Program-made: the position numbers and the translations under genes
Shown: one piece after another, positions 6,412 to 46,012 of the stretch
Numbering within the stretch: the stretch's first letter is position 1
Layout of the letters: every line of letters begins with the position of its first letter
Notes under the pieces: model-generated
The model's input: only the letters and a program-made list of their open reading frames with translations
Told to the model about the DNA's origin: nothing
Databases searched by the model: none
Assembly (NCBI GenBank): GCA_022385755.1
Contig: MU278355.1
Span: forward strand, 66,974 to 130,973
Direction: 5' to 3'
Origin: Trametopsis cervina
Taxonomy: Eukaryota > Basidiomycota > Agaricomycetes > Polyporales > Irpicaceae
DNA length: 64,000 nucleotides

Positions 6412-7430
6412 TTATTTGCTGTACTGCTTAACTTCCTCTTCACCCCCACCGACACCCAACATCTCCCGCACGGTGTCCTCGAATGGCTTCAGATCTCGGC
6501 CAAGGATATCGTGTAGTAGGGTGTCCACTACTGCGAGTTCACCACGCTTCAAGGCTGGGTAGGTCGTCGCCCATTTTGTCAACACGTCTACATCACCGTT
6601 GTTGCTTGCAATGTACTCCTGCACGGGGACGACCTGCAATTCGAGGGGCGAGTCCAGCTTGAGAGTAGTGGTGATGAGTTGGGCAAGTTCTGTAAGCGTC
6701 CAGGCTCGTAGTCCTGTGAACTTGATGATCTCGTTCTTGTGAGTGTCCTGCGTGCGGTGTGTGAGAGGGTGACACTCCTCGAGGAAATTTGATAGGTTAC
6801 TCACCGACGTCATAAGCTTCGCCGTACCCTCGCCAAGATCCTCTCTACACACCCATGCAATCCCACCGTCGCCATCTGGAATCTTCACCTGATTTCCGCG
6901 GGAGGGGTTCCAATACCCAAAGTACAACGGGTAGCTCTCGCTGTATATCCCCTCTCGTATGATAGTGTACGTTAGCCCGCTTTCCTTGAGATAACGCTCC
7001 GTATCGAGGTGCGCTTGCATGACCGCTGCTTGGCTGTCGCCACCAAACATCAATGAGGTGTAGTATACATGTTTGATACCGACGCGTCGCGCTGCATCGA
7101 TAGCGGCGATGTGGCTCTTGACGCGAATTTCGTGTGCGATGGAGGGATATGAGACGATGAGGAGTTTGTCGCCGCCTTTGAAGGCCGCGTCGAGTGTATC
7201 TGGCTTGCTGAAGTCTCCTTGACGGACCTCCACGCCGGACTGAGTGATTTCTGGTGAGGCTCCAGCAGGGTTATACAGCGAGACCACGACGTCACTCGCT
7301 GTACGATGTTGGGTTCAGAGTTCAGTTAGGTCCGTAAGTAGGAACACTCACCCGGAACGAGGCCTACCAAGTATTTGAAGACCTGGGAGCCAAGTCCGCC
7401 GGTTGCGCCTGTGACGATGTATTTTACCAT
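6412..7430 (-). CDS. NmrA-like NAD(P)-binding Rossmann protein
   Basis: Three exons on the minus strand (7430-7352, 7298-6805, 6747-6412) give 302 aa. The N-terminus starts directly with the dinucleotide loop (MVKYIVTGATGGLGSQV, a G-x-x-G-x-x-G motif), followed by VVSLYNPAG, EVRQGDFSKPDTL, LLIVSYPS, and HVYYTSLMFGG with the Y at the position used by extended SDRs. The middle YTIIREGIYSE and the C-terminal IIKFTGLRAWTLTELAQLI segments are typical of the NmrA/quinone-oxidoreductase-like group. Such proteins are redox sensors or NADPH-dependent reductases acting in the cytosol or nucleus; the substrate cannot be told. Phases match at both introns. The second intron can be read through in frame, but the spliced form fits the family better. 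Confidence 0.85.
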
Positions 7431-7659: not shown

Positions 7660-7660
7660 G

Positions 7661-7744
7661 TGGACACTGGGAGGATTGAACTCCCGACCTCACGCAATTG
7701 CAAGCTGATGCGAAGCGTGCGCGCTACCACTGTGCCAAGTGCCC
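7661..7744 (-). tRNA. tRNA-Ala (anticodon CGC) with a 12-nt intron
   Basis: Read on the minus strand, the 7-bp acceptor stem GGGCACT/AGTGTCC includes the G3:U70 wobble pair, the hallmark of alanine tRNA. The D arm is GCAC/GCGC with loop AGTGGTA (one A-C mismatch). The anticodon stem CACGC/GCGTG holds loop TT-CGC-A followed by a 12-nt intron (7708-7697) after position 37, then T38. The T arm is GGGAG TTCAATC CTCCC. Discriminator A. Without the intron the RNA is 72 nt. The A and B boxes are intact and a T10 terminator follows. It decodes GCG. Confidence 0.92.
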
Positions 7745-19391: not shown

Positions 19392-22216
19392 ATGGGCGTA
19401 CATGGACTCACAACGTACCTGCGAGAGCACAGGAACATAGCGAGAACGGTGCAGTTCACGACGAGCTATGCAAAATCTACTCCTATTGTGGTTGATGGGT
19501 GGTCGTGAGTGGTCATCGAATCCAGGCGAAGGGCAATCCGATACTGATTCGCTTCAATTCGTGTGGCGTCCAGTTTCATTTACGAGATCGTAGCTTTGAA
19601 TGACCAACCATGGGTCTATGGGGGAGAGTATAGAGAGTTCTCCGCTGCTATTGAGGAGGTAATACGAGCGTGGCTGGCCGTAGGACTTCACCTATACTTT
19701 GTCTTCGATGGTGAGCTTCAATGACCTCCCTGGCCAATTGATCTTGTTCAATAGCATCACCCTGATGTTGCATGCAAGGTCCCTTCCCGGAGTTGAAGTT
19801 TTCGACCATCATCTCTCGTGCGAATGAGAACGTGATCAAACCGTCTCTCCTCTTCTTCCGGACCTCTGCCGTCTCGCGGTCAAGACCCAAGTTCTTGCGG
19901 GAGAGCAGTCAATTGCCTCCCCGAACCTACATCGCATGTATCAAAACGCTACAGGGATTACAACACTCACTCGAAGGCGGTGACAGACTGGAGCTACATT
20001 TCGCTGACGAAGAGGGAGACCCATATGCTGTTGAACTCGCCGCTCGCCTTCGCGGTTTCGTCGTGGGAAAGGACTCTGACTTTGTCATCCTCAACGCTGA
20101 AGGCTACCAGGGATATATTCCTCTCGATGAAATGATTTGGTCTCCGCTCGCCGAGGCTGCAGCTTCAGCCGTCACTGACGAATGGGCCGGTGAAGACGGT
20201 TTCCAACCGGTGATGAACTCCAAGTGGAGGAGGAAGGCTGCGGTACTGCAGAAGCACGGTTCCTCATTACCTACAGGTATTATCCCCCCCGCCGGCACCA
20301 GTCCAGATACCCTCCAGCTCTCCGTCACGGCCTATCTCCCTGCGGATCTTGCTGCGTACTTGGAAATACCTTCAAGTTTACTTCCTTTACTCGCCTCCCT
20401 CGTCGGAAACGACTTTACTCGATCGCGTCCTGACGCATCATCAGCAACCACATCACAACAGCCGAATATACAATGGCTCTTTTTCGAACGCCATCTGACG
20501 CTCGCGCAACGTATCCAGCGCGTAGCACTGACCTTGCGCAATATTCTCAACTCAGCCCTCACGCCCTCCGGAAAGAAAGCGAAGAATCGTGAAAAAGAAC
20601 GCCTGACTGGTGTAATGGACCTCATAGACCGCGTTGTGACAGTTCTTCTCGTTCGTAATTTGGATACCATGGCGTCAGGCGAGAAAGAGCAGATCGTTGA
20701 ACGCATTGTCGAGGCAACCCTCCAGTACGCTATCCCTAAATACGAGGGTGAAGATGGGCGGCTTTGGTCTTCGGACGTATGTTTCTGGCACAAAGCTGGT
20801 GAATGCCCCCTGGCTCTCCTACGCTCTGAAGTTCGGCCCGAGCCATCCTTAGACTCGCAATCTGTTAGCAGTGCGAGCGCATCGTTGACAGAGGGTGAGG
20901 CTGTTCAGGACGAAGTTCAGAGTGAACGTGAGCGCGCACGTCATTTGTACGTCTCTGCGTACCGATCTGGCTACCTGGATCCGCATACCCTCGACGTGTT
21001 ACATTCAGGAACATTCTGGCATCGTCAGCTGCTGGAGAGTCCGGATTTGGAAACTGTGGCTCGTGTATTCTCTCGTCCTATCCAGCTATGGACGTACGCT
21101 ATCATCGATGAGGTTGTAAGGATACCCGTCAGAGGAGAAATGGACGAGGGGCCGGAGGTCGAGGGTTCTGTGGACCAAGCTGCGAGTGAAGATAGCGATG
21201 ACGATGAACTAGTCGACGTCGTGGAGGACACGGACACAGAGGGTGAAGACCCGTTAGCCCCATTGCGCGGAGCTCTGCAACAGTTGAACGACTCCGCTCT
21301 TGACCTACGACACGGAGCCAGTGGGGACGCATCCGCTACTTCTCAAGTCAAATCTAACTCGGCCGCGAAGAGCAGGCCGAGGAAAATTGTTGAGGAGTAT
21401 CTGCGACGAGGAACGCGCCTGGCAGCAGAGGAGGTCGAGGTTCCTTCGCTAGCGGAACTACTGGGCAACAGCCGGGCATCGACTCCTAGAGGCGACGACG
21501 ATAGCCTGCCCGTAGTCCTGCTTCCAGCTAAAGCACGCCTCTCGATACTTTTACGTGCTCTAGGAGTGGAAGAAAACACCCTGCCAGTGATGCTCAACCT
21601 CCTTCGGGGCATACCTCCAGAACTTCGTATTCCGGCGCTCACTCTGCGCTGGGTGGTATCTCGCCTCCATGCGCGTGCACGGGAAAGTGGTGGCAACAGG
21701 GAGCGAGAGAAAGAAAAATGGTCGAAGCAGGAAGCGCTAGCGTTCCTTGCTTCCTTCAGCTTCGCTACAGCTCCTTCAGTCAGCAATGACCACGAGATCC
21801 CCATTGTAGATAGAAACGTCCAACTGGTGGCGCAGGTCTTCGCCACAACAGACGCTATCGAGCGACTCTCCGAGTGGTTACTGCTATCTTCGCCTGGTAA
21901 CACGAGCGCTGAGTTTCTGCTTCCGAGTCCTGCCCTCCTTTTCTCAGGAAAGACATTTCACGCCTATCTGACAAGTACAAAACCTATACCACAAGACGCT
22001 GCTAGACTCTCCCTATGCACAGCGGTATGCGAAGGGTTGGACGGCGCATTTGCAGAACAGCCCGACAAGAAACGAAAGAAAGAAAAAGAACGTTCTACTG
22101 CTCCTGATAACACGGTACCGGTCGCCAACAGGTGGCGGGGAGCGCGAGGAAAGAAGACGAATCAAGGTGATGCGGGTGGCAAGTTTGGATTGCTTGCTAG
22201 CTTGGGAACGGACTAA
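19392..22216 (+). CDS. Asteroid-like protein with N-terminal XPG/PIN nuclease fold
   Basis: Exons 19392-19504, 19574-19710 and 19779-22216 give 895 aa. The start MGVHGLTTYLREHR is the classic Asteroid/FEN1-type N-terminus. Splicing joins IVVDGWS to FIYEIVALNDQPWVYGGEY, then AWLAVGLHLYFVFDG to PFPELKFSTII, supplying the first two PIN-domain acidic residues. DSDFVILNAEGYQGYIPLDEMIW marks the second (I-region) acidic site. The rest is a long Asteroid-type C-terminal region with acidic linkers (around EDSDDDELVDVVED) and a basic tail (DKKRKKEKER). Asteroid proteins are XPG-family relatives of unclear biochemical role, usually nuclear. The first two introns are phase 2 and phase 1 and both restore conserved residues, so the start is secure. 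Confidence 0.92.
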
Positions 22217-22818: not shown

Positions 22819-23586
22819 TCACTGCTGAGACTGGCGTCGGCATTGAGCAATGTTGGCACAGCCGCGTGCACTGACATTCACTTCGGGTTCCGGGACTGGC
22901 TGGGGTTCGGGATCGGCTTCGCGTTTAAGCTGTGATTCGCTCGTGCTGGTCCGTGCCGTAACCGTGATTGCTGGCTCAGGTTCTGGCACAGGCACGGGCT
23001 GTGGATCTCGCTTGCACTGAGCGGCGTTGGCGCAGCCGCGCATCGCAACCACGACTTCTGGCTCTGGCCGCGGCTCCGGTTGTGGCTCTGGCTCTGGTTG
23101 TGGTTGTGGATCGGGTTCGCGTCTGCATTGAGCTATATTCGCACAACCGCGTGGCAGAACGAGAATCTCTGGCTCGGGTGTAGGATCTGGTTCGCGTTTG
23201 CACTGAGCCACATTAGCGCAGCCGCGCCCAAGATTGTCCCTCTACATGCATTATCAGTGCCTTGAAGAGGTACGCGAGTCGTGATGCATACGTACAGCAA
23301 TCATGCCGGCAACCGCGGCAAGTTCGAAGCGAGGCTGGAGATTATCTAAGTCTCACATGTTCACTTTCATAGTTCGATGAGCAGACTCACCCCGACAAGT
23401 GTTTCTGCGGCCCTAGCAATGTTAACGCTGTCGTACATAGGTGCAGAATATGCCAAAGGAGCAGCTAAAAGCAAGTGCGACCCGTCAATAAGCTTTTTGT
23501 GGATGATAATAAATGAAACCTAACCCACCGCCAACAACCAGTGCCGAAATGGCGAATGTACGGGTGAGAATGAACACCTGGACCAT
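22819..23586 (-). CDS. secreted repeat precursor with alpha-factor/KEP-like architecture
   Basis: Exons 23586-23529, 23464-23391, 23334-23296 and 23241-22819 give 197 aa. Residues 1-27 form a signal peptide (VFILTRTFAISALVVGAAPL, likely cleavage after YSA). Exon 4 carries five units, each ending in a dibasic site: KR72-73, RR97-98, KR134-135, KR163-164, RR192-193. Exactly 15 residues precede each site: ARDNLGRGCANVAQC, EILVLPRGCANIAQC, EVVVAMRGCANAAQC, AITVTARTSTSESQL, EVNVSARGCANIAQC. Each dibasic site except the last is followed by 4-10 X-Pro/X-Ala dipeptides (EPDPTPEP, EADPEPQPVPEP), substrates of Ste13-type dipeptidyl peptidases. This is the layout of yeast alpha-factor and of Kex2-processed repeat proteins. 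Role unknown; a signalling peptide or a cyclic-peptide precursor is inferred. Confidence 0.8.
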
Positions 23587-42029: not shown

Positions 42030-45000
42030 ATGTCCAGAGCAACGCGCTCTCAGCTTACGCTGCCTGATCTCAACTTCACTTTGTTATCACAGTCTCCCCT
42101 CAAGCAGGCGCGTAATGCGAGACAGAATGACGACGCCCCGCCGGAGACAATGCGCGATACTTACTTCTCTGCGGCACGTGCCGACGCTGAAGAGGGATCG
42201 TCAAAGCAACATCGGAAGAGGCCATCGTCTCCTGACACAGAGCGCATCCTGGAGCAGGTGAATGAAAGAGTTGCAAAGAAACCGAAGAACAATGAGTCAG
42301 GTATGTCTTCTGCCACCTACGAGATATGTAGGACCTCGTCCGATCTGCGGTGCAGATTCCACTGGAGACAGCCTCATCTCAGGCAAACCCGTTTCAACTT
42401 CATCACTACCCCCGCAGCCCTCGCCACAATTTCGCCCTATATCGTCTCCGAACGCAACCCCCCGTGCACAATCAGTACCTGCAAGAAGCGCTGTACCGCA
42501 TCTTGATCTCAGCCGGGTTCCTCCCTCTCCCTCCAAGCAAAGAGCTACCGAGAGACTACGGTTTACGTCGGTACCTCCCGAAGGAGTTATGCCCACGATA
42601 ATCACTACGCTTCCGAGCTCAGGCGAGCTCAGTATGGCACGCAGCCAAGATCGAGACCTGGATGTACAAGGAGAAGTCGCGCCCCTCCCTGCTCTTGCAT
42701 TTGGTTCTCCGCCAGCTACCCCTGTAGCAGCGGGCCCGTTTGCTTTCGCTACTACATCTCCACTGACCCCCCTTCCTCCAACGCCGTTCGTCCACTCAAG
42801 TGCTCCCGGATCTACAGTCAAGTATCAAGATGTGGTAGTGGCGATTAAACAAGACGTCGACCAGGATGACGCGACTCAACAGGCGTCCTCTCGTGCGAAG
42901 ACTCCTACACCTGCGAGCCGTATCCCCCGTCCATCAACCGCTTCTTCCATCCTCTCCGCTAAGAAGGGCGTAGTCTCGAAAATGAGACCTAAAACGCCAA
43001 CAACCCCATCACGCCCAAGCAGTCCATCCCTCGATTCTCCCTCGAAACCTCTACCTCCGAAGACGCCAACGCGAGTTAAGCAGCCTGCTATTCCTGGCAG
43101 CTCTATGAAAGCGAAGACACCAGCTCGAGGTCGCCCATCGACTCCCGGCCCCTCAAGATCGAAAACCCCTGCAGCGGATGTCAAAACACCAGGCCCTTCA
43201 AATGGCGCGGAGACTAGACGTTCAAGAACGCCCGCAGTAATCCGTTCGCGACCGCATACACCGATGCAAGCTGAGGAAGACGTCTTCAATGTTACGCATG
43301 CGGCCGAGCCACAAAGTTTCTCCCAGGATCCTTCCACTCCAAAGGTCAAGCCTCCAGTGACGCCGTCACCAGTGCCAGTCGAGAAGGACATACCGCCAGA
43401 GACTACTAATATCGATGCTGCTGCAGCCACCGCCCAACAGCCTGACGGTAAACATGAGGAAAGACCGCCCGTAGCCGGGCCATCCAGCACGAAGGTCGAT
43501 CCCCCTACCGTTGCACCTACAAAGGTTGCGACAGGGTCTCAGCCTGGTGCGTTTGGCACGAACGGGCTCACTCGGAGGCCGCTACCGCGGAAGAAACCTG
43601 TCTCGTCTTCCACAGATGCGAAAGTAGCTGGGAGAATCACAAGGTCGGCATCGCTAAGACAGCAGGATGTTAAGGCGCGGGGTGACAAGAAGCAGGATGA
43701 GGAGAAGAAGGAGCCGGAGATCAGAAGGCCAGTTTCTGTGGTGGGCGTTACCAGTGCCGCGCAAGGTGAGCATGAGTGTCACGCAGCTCGTTCTGACCGC
43801 TTATATGCATGCAGCTCCGTCGTCTACGCCTTCCGTCAGTGCAGTGAAGACGCCTATGCGCGGAAGGTCAGCGACCGTGTCGATCACCCGGCCCACCGCT
43901 AGCTCTGCGGCCAAATCCAACCCGTCTTCTCCAGTGAAGTCTCGCCCGCCTGCCTCAACAGCGACCTCCCGTCCATCCATGGGGCCGTCTCGTCCGCAGA
44001 CATCTATGAGCGTGCATAGGCCCCCGAATAGCACGAGCGCCGCATCGTCTTCCGGCGCATTGTCCACGCTCTCGCTGGCTTTGGAGAAGCTGAACATGCC
44101 GCCGCCGTCACGACCGAACTCAAGTGTAGGCTTCAATCGGGCGAATACGAGTCTTGGGTTCAATAGGGAGAAGGGGAAGGGTGCCGATCTTATGGACGTG
44201 GACAGTGAACCCTCCCAGCCCTCGAGAACGTCTGTTAGATCCGCTGGGGACAATAGTCGTCCCAAGACTCATCACAAATCTGCTTCCAACGCTACGCCAG
44301 GGACAAGCAATCCTTCTAGTCAACCTACGAAACCCGGTCCAATACGACGCACTAACACTATAGGCCATACTGGTGTCAGCATAGGAACGAAGGACAATAC
44401 GAAACAGAAGACATCGCTCATGCCTCCCCCTCCGGTGCCAAGTACGCAACCTGTTACCGCCCCCACTGAAGTCAAGAAGTCGATCAGTCTGCATAATGGT
44501 ATGGTGTCCGGCAAAGCCAAAGGCGGTTTTATCTTCGGGAACAACAAGCCCGGTGCAGCGCGGGGAATATTTGGTGTAGCTGCGTTGCCATCTTCTATGC
44601 AGCCTGGTTCGTCTGCTGTTAGAGATCGTGTCGTACACCGCGTGAGCAAGCAGTCGAGCTTGCCTGTCGTTGAAGGAAGTCCGGTGAAAGGTGGTGAGAG
44701 GGACGCAGATGGCGATGTTGCCATGGATTCACCGGAGCCTCTTTCTGATTCTGAAGTTCGCCCGTCGGTTGACTCTAACCCCTTCGCGCCTCGCCCGTCG
44801 ACTGCGACTCCGGTTCATTCGACTGGCGATATGATGGTGCCTATCCGGGATGCTGAGCATGATGGCGAGGCGGAGGTCAAGGATCCGTCGTCTAATCAAC
44901 GCAAGAATCAGTCTCGTCGAGCGTCGCAAGCACACCAATTTCTATCCGAATCTCTGTCCTCCCTCCCGCAAACACCGCCCCGGAAGGCCCCTGCTACGGA

Positions 45001-46012
45001 AGGCAAAGGGAAGGGTCGTGCGGATAGCAATGGCCAGTCGAGCTCCAGGACCGAGATGAACAGGCGGTCTGCCCCTGGGGTACTTGGTGGCACTAACGGA
45101 AATGGTGCTCGTGTATCCACGCGTAGGGCCGCTGCTGCAGCTGCCGCCATTGCGATTACTCCTCCCGTCACAGACAAACCGCCGAAAGTCTCCACACCCG
45201 GCTCGTCTCAGGCCCCAGGGGTGAAGCAGAAGACGTTGAAGATCCTGCGTGAGTGCAACGTGTTCGTCGACGTGAGGACAGATGATGGCGACGATGCTGG
45301 TTCGCTGTTCGTGGAGATGCTGAAAGGTCTGGGCGCAAGGGTTCGTCTGCTTGGTTCGCGATCAGACGACGGATGAGCTGATTCGTGCCTTTTAGATACT
45401 CAGTAGGGTAGGACAGACCTGCACGCATATCATATACAAGAATGGGCTGATGAGTACACTGACTCGATATCGGTGCGCACTAAATCTTATTGGCGAGAGC
45501 AAACTGCTAACGGCTTATGCAGACTGCTGAACACGCCGAAGCCTGCGGTCGTCGGGATCGGATGGGTTGTCGAGTGCGTAGAGCAGAGGGCCCGCGTCGA
45601 TGAGGCAGCGTTCTTAATTGACATTGAGGGTGCCAGCATTGCCGGCTCAAACAAGGTGCGCATTCATTGAGACTTTCCAAAGACTGAATAGCGGTCTCAT
45701 AAGTATGTATCAGAGACGCCGCTCGATGCTGCCAAAGCATCTCTTGGATTCGCCAGAACGTCCCAAGCAAACCGCTCCCCAGACTGCACAAGCTCAGGAC
45801 GGAGCGGTCGTCCCTTCCAACACAGAATTATCATCGTCACGTAAGTGCGTTTTTCAGCCGTTTGGCGGCGAGACTAACCATCGAATCGTGCAGCGTCCTC
45901 CGAAGGAGCTACTGTGGACCGTTCTCTAGACGACCTTCCTCCCCTTGAGCGGGCCCGACGGCGACAGAGCACGATGCATTCTCGCGCACGAACGATTGAG
46001 AGTTATATGTAG
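42030..46012 (+). CDS. large BRCT-domain nuclear protein
   Basis: Seven exons (42030-42300, 42356-43765, 43815-45340, 45396-45472, 45523-45655, 45714-45840, 45894-46012) give 1220 aa. Residues 30-1030 are low-complexity Ser/Pro/Thr/Lys with many K-T-P and S/T-P motifs (RAKTPTPASRIPRP, KAKTPARGRPSTPGPS), expected CDK targets. The C-terminus is one BRCT domain rebuilt by splicing: LKILRECNVFVDVRTDDGDD, LFVEMLKGLGAR-ILSRVGQ, TCTHIIYKNGLMSTLTRYR, then PAVVGIGWVVECVEQ with the invariant Trp. It is followed by RRRSMLPKHLL. BRCT domains bind phosphopeptides in DNA-damage and cell-cycle signalling. The overall layout is like fungal microcephalin-type single-BRCT proteins, but orthology is not proven. 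Confidence 0.88.

What the first reader, a model, noticed from the sequence alone, without database searches (positions are those of the whole stretch)
22819..23586. Alpha-factor-like multi-peptide precursor in a basidiomycete
Seen directly: a signal peptide, five units each ending in KR or RR, and exactly 15 residues before every dibasic pair (for example EILVLPRGCANIAQC, EVVVAMRGCANAAQC, EVNVSARGCANIAQC). Four of the five carry C-A-N-x-A-Q-C, which could close a seven-residue disulfide ring. After four dibasic sites comes a run of X-Pro/X-Ala dipeptides (EP-DP-TP-EP; EA-DP-EP-QP-VP-EP), exactly what Ste13-type dipeptidyl peptidases remove. Known: ascomycete alpha-factor precursors use this Kex2 plus Ste13 design, whereas basidiomycete mating pheromones are CaaX lipopeptides. 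Inference: a secreted 15-residue peptide family of unknown purpose (signalling, defence, or a modified cyclic peptide).
Basis: partly seen in the sequence, partly recalled or inferred. Interest (0 to 1): 0.9.

Follow-up and report, generated by a model that had tools for sequence, protein, structure and literature searches.

The report
Polypore multi-copy disulfide-ring peptide precursor
A wood-decay fungus carries a gene for a secreted precursor that looks set to be cut into several small ring-closed peptides; it belongs to a family of bracket-fungus peptide genes whose secretion signal is kept nearly letter-for-letter while the peptides differ, and whose purpose is unknown.

Summary
A four-exon minus-strand gene (23586-22819) encodes 197 aa: signal peptide, five dibasic sites, four CANxAQC cores, and four in-phase X-P/X-A runs each followed by exactly 15 residues. 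The cores are under protein-level selection (pS 0.69, pN 0.086). The architecture is known: KEX2-processed repeat proteins (KEPs) with STE13-type spacers are published in basidiomycetes (PMC6339444, PMC9769878). The family seems undescribed. Relatives occur in 44 named species of 28 genera, all Polyporales as far as known. They share a nearly invariant exon-1 signal peptide (FILTRTFAISALFVGA) and a core R-x-C-x(4-5)-C: 117 instances in 91 proteins, 102 with R/K two before the first Cys; shuffles give 12.3 and 1.3. The 15-residue spacing is not conserved in homologs. The conserved unit is an octapeptide (GCANIAQC here, NCNGYMGC in Irpex, TCFNVAYC in Phanerochaete, SCRQQGCL in Trametes), so the 15-mer is probably an intermediate or alternative product. 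No STE2 match was found (test without positive control); STE3 and UstYa matches lie on other contigs. Best reading: a secreted disulfide-closed signalling octapeptide, not a mating pheromone. A marginal match to the C-terminal loop of plant RALF remains a weak rival.

The parts
23529..23586 (-). exon 1: MVQVFILTRTFAISALVVG + first base of the next codon; the nearly invariant signal-peptide exon
   Evidence: alignment; mean pairwise identity 0.88 over 44 rows
23465..23528 (-). intron 1 (GTGGGT..TTTTAG); position shared with relatives
   Evidence: apparently unspliced metagenome rows
23391..23464 (-). exon 2: end of signal peptide (..AAPLAYSAP) and start of propeptide
   Evidence: homologs P0001-P0003
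23335..23390 (-). intron 2 (GTGAGT..CTCCAG)
23296..23334 (-). exon 3 (13 codons, PRFELAAVAGMIA); predicted from splice signals and frame only
23242..23295 (-). intron 3 (GTACGT..TGTAG)
22819..23241 (-). exon 4: all five repeat units and stop codon
23200..23223 (-). core 1 GCANVAQC, followed by KR
23170..23193 (-). dipeptide run 1 EP-DP-TP-EP
23125..23169 (-). unit 2, 15-mer EILVLPRGCANIAQC (core GCANIAQC 23125-23148), followed by RR
23059..23118 (-). dipeptide run 2, ten X-P
23014..23058 (-). unit 3, 15-mer EVVVAMRGCANAAQC (core 23014-23037), followed by KR
22972..23007 (-). dipeptide run 3, six X-P
22927..22971 (-). unit 4, 15-mer AITVTARTSTSESQL: no Cys, keeps length and the Arg, followed by KR
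22885..22920 (-). dipeptide run 4 EA-DP-EP-QP-VP-EP
22840..22884 (-). unit 5, 15-mer EVNVSARGCANIAQC (core 22840-22863), followed by RR; the stretch that matches the C-terminal 20 columns of Pfam RALF

Best explanation
The gene encodes a KEP-type preproprotein of a family so far seen only in Polyporales. After the signal peptide is removed, Kex2 cuts after KR/RR, a Kex1-type carboxypeptidase trims the basic residues, and a Ste13/DPP-type peptidase removes the in-phase X-P/X-A dipeptides. This yields 15-mers that are probably cut again after the conserved Arg to leave the octapeptide GCAN[VIA]AQC, closed by one disulfide (CX5C). Four copies plus one decayed copy are made per precursor. The peptide most likely acts outside the cell as a hormone-like signal (self or neighbour communication) through a receptor other than STE2/STE3, not as a mating pheromone. 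Shown by sequence: gene model (except exon 3), sites, phases, selection on cores, family, presence of Kex2-like and DPPIV-like genes. Inferred: expression, actual cleavage, disulfide, signalling role.
For: Gene anatomy; purifying selection between cores; a relative found with the full protein at E 5.6e-5; 20 of 20 proteins found at E up to 10 by a query of residues 1-45 of P0001 alone carry a downstream Cx4-5C. R/K at -2 in 102 of 117 instances against a shuffle mean of 1.3. The same octapeptide start is reached by different routes in relatives: R| in Irpex, KR| in Trametopsis, after EA-DP-EP-AP in Phanerochaete; six precursors end exactly one residue after the second Cys. Kex2 P-domain and DPPIV_N matches present. 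Products consistent with cutting after single Arg, and XP/XA trimming, were seen by mass spectrometry for C. cinerea KEPs expressed in Pichia (PMC9769878, first of three parts of Results and the Discussion read). The stretch CRQMGCLYALP is identical in members from Cerioporus, Polyporus, Lentinus, Trametes and Cubamyces and changed at few places in Fomes, Daedaleopsis, Dichomitus, Ganoderma, Pilatotrama and Earliella, which fits a conserved signal better than an arms-race toxin.
Against: No transcript or peptide data. C. cinerea kep knockouts showed no phenotype, which the authors read as pointing to biotic interaction (PMC9769878). Cores differ strongly between clades, and 15 of 117 instances lack R/K at -2. 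X-P runs are only partial in Irpex (DP-EP, then PV). The exact fit of 15-mers to the X-P phase in this species argues that the 15-mer itself may be the product. One of five units has no Cys.
Confidence: 0.5

Rival explanations
1. The peptides are defence or competition molecules (antimicrobial, anti-nematode or anti-fungal small cyclic peptides), with a conserved secretion exon and diversified cores.
For: Conserved signal exon with divergent cores, and paralogs with neighbouring locus tags in Trametes versicolor (VTO73DRAFT_11528/11530/11531), T. sanguinea and Wolfiporia; cores differ between clades; the KEP paper favours biotic interaction.
Against: Cores are tiny and carry little charge (none in GCANIAQC, one Arg in CRQMGC); the core is nearly unchanged over about eleven genera; cores in this gene are under purifying, not diversifying, selection; the C. 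[quoted passage not shown]
Confidence: 0.25
2. The core mimics the C-terminal (second) disulfide loop of plant RALF peptides and acts on plant cell-surface receptors.
For: Pfam RALF (PF05498) matches this protein at 22.3 bits against a cut-off of 22.0, E 0.00028, best stretch residues 174-193 on model columns 46-65 of 65. A review says that RALFs of nematodes and Fusarium lack the first disulfide and keep the second, and that FERONIA binds the conserved C-terminus of RALF1 (PMC10442051, passages read); another says that fungal RALF homologues occur in ascomycetes and basidiomycetes (PMC5679519, passages read).
Against: Only this member matches: 0 of 21 other members of A1 up to E 1, 0 of 4 other CX5C members up to E 10. 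Of the four intact units given alone only unit 5 matches, at 18.2 bits, below the cut-off; units 1, 2 and 3 do not match up to E 10. A search of the own genome with the RALF family gave no match at E 0.001, this locus included (no control rang). No YIxY motif and no RRxL site in the protein (by inspection). Much of the match (Arg, both Cys, following basic pair) is family-wide and so not RALF-specific.
Confidence: 0.06
3. The cores are RiPP precursors modified by UstYa-type enzymes (dikaritin-like cyclic peptides).
For: KEP layout equals that of dikaritin precursors (PMC9769878 introduction); five UstYa stretches exist in the genome.
Against: All five UstYa stretches found lie on contigs C1, C11 and C18, none on C8 (only best candidates are scored); cores of this gene hold no Tyr; the two Cys give a simple ring.
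Confidence: 0.07
4. A true alpha-type mating pheromone acting in a basidiomycete.
For: Kex2 plus Ste13 layout and a two-Cys core as in some ascomycete alpha pheromones.
Against: No STE2 match in the genome (no control genome rang, so weak); STE3 matches on C15 and C11, not on the contig of this gene; no MF_alpha Pfam match in 22 members; sexual pheromones of basidiomycetes are a-type (PMC6339444, passages).
Confidence: 0.03

Closest known systems
KEX2-processed repeat proteins (KEPs) with STE13 signature in Basidiomycota (Le Marquer 2019; Umemura 2020; Vogt 2022)
   Same: Signal peptide, repeated cores at dibasic sites, in-phase XP/XA dipeptides, unknown function
   Different: Cores here are disulfide-capable Cx4-5C octapeptides with a nearly invariant exon-1 signal peptide; 59 of the 80 motif-bearing proteins hold one core (some are truncated models) and would not be called repeats. 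Whether any member stands in the supplementary lists of those papers could not be checked.
Ascomycete alpha-type pheromone precursors
   Same: Processing design; some have two Cys in the core
   Different: No MF_alpha match; ring CX5C; no STE2 found
Dikaritin RiPP precursors (ustiloxin, asperipin, epichloecyclin)
   Same: KEP layout
   Different: No UstYa match found on the contig; no Tyr in the cores of this gene
RALF peptides, plant and fungal
   Same: The whole protein reaches the Pfam cut-off marginally, through unit 5
   Different: No YIxY, no RRxL, no first disulfide; relatives and the other three intact units do not match

Membership tests
KEP (KEX2-processed repeat protein) | N-terminal signal peptide | tested here: met
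   exon 1-2 sequence and homologs by inspection, (no signal-peptide predictor was run)
KEP (KEX2-processed repeat protein) | repeated similar peptides separated by KR/RR/KK | tested here: met
   five sites, four near-identical cores
KEP (KEX2-processed repeat protein) | actual cleavage to peptides | not testable with these tools
   needs peptidomics
STE13-signature KEP | XP/XA dipeptides directly after the dibasic site, in phase | tested here: met
   4 of 5 sites, runs of 4, 10, 6 and 6
ascomycete alpha pheromone | MF_alpha Pfam match | tested here: not met
   0 of 22 members up to E 1
ascomycete alpha pheromone | STE2 receptor in the genome | tested here: inconclusive
   no match, but no control genome rang either; STE3 is found by the same method
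dikaritin RiPP | UstYa/DUF3328 gene close to the precursor | tested here: not met
   all five stretches found lie on other contigs
RALF | Pfam PF05498 at its curated cut-off | tested here: inconclusive
   22.3 against 22.0 for the whole protein, 18.2 for unit 5, no match for units 1, 2 and 3; no match in the six-frame search
RALF | YIxY motif, RRxL site and four Cys in one peptide | tested here: not met
   inspection of the translation; motif definitions from PMC10442051 passages

The most novel reading that the evidence does not exclude
Polypores share a peptide-hormone system unknown so far: a disulfide octapeptide family processed like alpha-factor, in which the signal peptide itself, coded by one small exon and conserved at 88% mean pairwise identity over 44 rows while most of what follows drifts, has a second function (a released signal-peptide fragment, a translational or sorting code, or recognition by a dedicated modifying or export factor).
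Probability: 0.15. Interest if true: 0.85.

Novelty: new variant of a known kind. Interest (0 to 1): 0.6.

Why it matters
Basidiomycetes carry alpha-factor-style precursors although their known mating pheromones are lipopeptides, and what those precursors are for is an open question stated in PMC6339444 and PMC9769878. Here is a family with a defined minimal core, found in 28 genera of wood-decay fungi that include Ganoderma, Trametes, Wolfiporia and Fomes. It can be tested with eight-residue synthetic peptides. The near-invariant signal-peptide exon is a second, separate puzzle and gives a usable tag for finding members that repeat-based KEP surveys would miss because they hold only one core.

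Tried and rejected
Mating-locus link: STE3 matches lie on C15 and C11, not C8. UstYa cluster: no match on C8. Paralogs in this genome: none seen with the whole protein or with P0019; the only other matches were weak (E 1.09 on C7, E 0.897 on C2). Pfam scan of 30 stop-to-stop ORFs (one given in part) of the 64 listed: only an NmrA-like dehydrogenase (6412-7314) and a sub-threshold XPG_I_2 match (19766-22216); no hint of a biosynthetic cluster, though introns make this scan insensitive. Solved structures: best E 0.19, by low-complexity stretches; none for one unit. Trypan_PARP (PF05887, E 2.9e-9, 37.4 bits against a cut-off of 100) is an EP-repeat match and was discarded. Other Pfam matches of members of A1 up to E 1 (DUF7640, EryCIII-like_C, RseA_C, Cnd1_N, CCAP, Colipase) were discarded as weak and seen in one or two members each. 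P0091 (E 2.4, PF06035) was dropped as unrelated before the counts; it is in the listing but lacks the motif. NCBIfam: best E 0.017. Species: one exon each of two of the three GH7 genes was searched; both match PDB 1gpi best, not identically. This does not identify the species. Placing the genome near the phlebioid polypores rests on the closeness of the signal peptide and CX5C core to Irpex and Phanerochaete. Papers: searches gave no listing that describes this family; supplementary tables could not be read and most subscription journals are not held.

Full report
What is there. The minus strand of window 23586-22819 reads as a four-exon gene. The protein is MVQVFILTRTFAISALVVGAAPLAYSAP, a short propeptide, and then five units ending in KR or RR. 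Four units carry GCANxAQC; the fourth unit keeps the length and the Arg but has no Cys (TSTSESQL in place of GCANxAQC). After dibasic sites 1 to 4 come 4, 10, 6 and 6 X-P/X-A dipeptides that start directly after the dibasic pair and stay in phase, and then exactly 15 residues to the next pair. Exon 3 is the weakest part of the model, but leaving it out keeps the frame. A DNA pattern for the core finds four places in the whole 29.4-Mb assembly, all in this gene; the reversed control pattern finds one.

Is it a real gene? The four cores differ at 5 to 11 of 33 nucleotides per pair, but in residues only at the one variable ring position and at K/R of the dibasic site. Pooled pS is 0.69 and pN 0.086; under random mutation so few amino-acid changes have P between 0.00005 and 0.0154 for each of the six pairs, which are not independent. 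This points to selection on the peptide, without any transcript.

Family. The full protein finds Irpex lacteus P0001 (E 5.6e-5) and, weakly, Phanerochaete sordida P0002 (E 0.33); only 7994 candidates were scored. A query made only of the first 45 residues of P0001 gave 20 proteins with E up to 10 among 26 candidates, P0001 itself included; all 20 have a Cx4-5C in the part beyond the signal peptide, a feature the query could not have selected. P0002 was not among them although it shares the signal peptide, so these searches miss members. An alignment query gave 89 proteins with E up to 10 among 7995 scored candidates, one of which (P0091, E 2.4) I dropped. Of 71 rows that carry a species name, 44 species and 28 genera are represented. 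Ten species looked up are all Polyporales; the other genera are Polyporales by recall. In 91 proteins (90 found plus this one) 80 have Cx4-5C and 21 have two or more copies; there are 117 instances, 103 Cx4C and 14 Cx5C, with R or K two residues before the first Cys in 102. Shuffling the parts beyond the signal peptide 200 times gives a mean of 12.3 instances (most 21) and 1.3 with R/K (most 6). Related sequences make these counts not independent. By genus, Cx3-6C is present in 28 of 28 named genera, Cx4-5C in 26, and R/K at -2 in 23; Phanerochaete, Meripilus, Antrodiella, Somion and Abortiporus lack R/K there. The 11 proteins without Cx4-5C are P0074, P0076, P0078, P0080, P0082, P0084-P0088 and P0090; several look unspliced or truncated, P0082 and P0085 have Cx3C instead, and P0076, P0080 and P0088 have no Cys there.

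What the conserved unit is. In the phlebioid relatives the core is x-C-x5-C, mostly directly before a basic pair: R|GCANIAQC|RR here, R|NCNGYMGC|RR in Irpex, KR|TCYSIMAC|RR in Trametopsis, and in Phanerochaete TCFNVAYC|KR standing directly after EA-DP-EP-AP. So the same N-terminal end can be reached by a single Arg, by a dibasic site or by trimming of X-P dipeptides. Exceptions among the 14 Cx5C instances are two Irpex copies followed by KA and RE, and a CVSGISC in Phanerochaete without flanking sites. Elsewhere the core is mostly x-C-R-x-x-G-C-L/M: L or M follows the second Cys in 94 of 103 Cx4C instances, K or R comes next in 37 of those 94, and six precursors end exactly one residue after the second Cys. 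In Somion the layout KR-(XP)n-core returns in two of three units with a Cx3C core. I saw the 15-residue length in none of these, and X-P runs are only partial in Irpex. I therefore take the octapeptide as the likely product and the 15-mer as an intermediate or alternative. Products that seem to come from cutting after single Arg, and removal of XP/XA dipeptides, were both reported for C. cinerea KEPs expressed in Pichia (PMC9769878: introduction, first of three parts of Results, and Discussion read).

The signal peptide. Residues 5-20 are almost fixed. Over 44 rows (one per species plus this gene; rows matching fewer than 10 of 16 consensus residues were left out, which removed Fomitopsis serialis P0083, a model without this start) mean pairwise identity is 0.88 for the 15 residues coded by exon 1 and 0.46 for six residues just after intron 1. 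Seven metagenome rows appear to be translated without splicing at the same codon. The searches used words from this very region, so members with a drifted signal peptide may have been missed and the figure is an upper estimate. Even so, sequence identity of this kind, not just hydrophobicity, is unusual for a signal peptide (general knowledge, not tested here). I cannot explain it.

Machinery. The genome has a Kex2-type P-domain match on C5 and a DPPIV-type match on C21, so cutting and trimming are feasible; a Kex1-type gene was not sought. STE3 matches are strong and lie on C15 and C11. STE2 gave none, but that family rang in no control genome either. UstYa stretches were found on C1, C11 and C18 only. 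No second copy of the gene was found; these searches score only the best candidates.

How it probably works. Secretion, Kex2 cutting, Kex1 trimming, dipeptidyl trimming, possible further cutting at Arg, and oxidation to a seven-residue ring. The outcome is several copies of one small ring peptide per precursor. I think a signalling role most likely: CRQMGCLYALP is identical in members from Cerioporus, Polyporus, Lentinus, Trametes and Cubamyces and little changed in six further genera, and the cores here are held by purifying selection. Defence is the main rival. A mating role is unlikely.

RALF. Pfam RALF matches this protein just above its cut-off (22.3 against 22.0) on the last 20 columns of the model. 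Unit 5 alone gives 18.2, below the cut-off, and units 1, 2 and 3 alone give no match up to E 10. The other 21 members of alignment A1 do not match, and a search of the genome with this family gives nothing at E 0.001 (no control rang). A review says that Fusarium and nematode RALF mimics keep just the second disulfide, at the C-terminus (PMC10442051, passages). Most of the shared residues are family-wide, so I rate the match as probably chance, yet testable.

Known or new. KEPs with STE13 signatures in basidiomycetes are published (PMC6339444, sections 9 and 15 and passages read; PMC7329392, passages and the first of two parts of section 6 read; PMC9769878 as above). 'Cystein' and 'disulfide' do not occur in the main text of PMC9769878 or PMC7329392, and 'disulfide' not in PMC6339444, which does speak of two conserved Cys in ascomycete alpha pheromones and in one KEP of the basidiomycete yeast Trichosporon oleaginosus. 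The searches listed no paper on this family. Supplementary lists were out of reach, so single members may be listed there.

Noticed in passing
P0003 (Irpex rosettiformis): A sub-threshold match of P0003 to Pfam CCAP, the arthropod cardioacceleratory peptide (12.1 bits against 27, E 0.19); the Irpex core and CCAP are both CX5C rings (CCAP ring recalled). Probably chance.
   Followed up: no
P0015, P0032, P0034 (T. versicolor); P0031, P0042, P0063 (T. sanguinea); P0035, P0051 (Wolfiporia): Paralogs with neighbouring locus tags: single-core and multi-core precursors with nearly the same signal peptide apparently close together.
   Followed up: partly
P0082 (Somion occarium): KR followed by in-phase X-P runs in two of three units and a Cx3C core: another lineage with the alpha-factor-like layout and a different ring size.
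   Followed up: partly
window 42262-45376, + strand: Two overlapping long open frames (546 and 572 aa) without any Pfam match at E 0.001.
   Followed up: no
window 19766-22216, + strand: 816-aa open frame next to the gene with a weak, sub-threshold XPG_I_2 match.
   Followed up: no
window 6412-7314, - strand: NmrA-like NAD(P)-binding protein.
   Followed up: no
window 7660-7744, - strand: tRNA-Cys gene.
   Followed up: no
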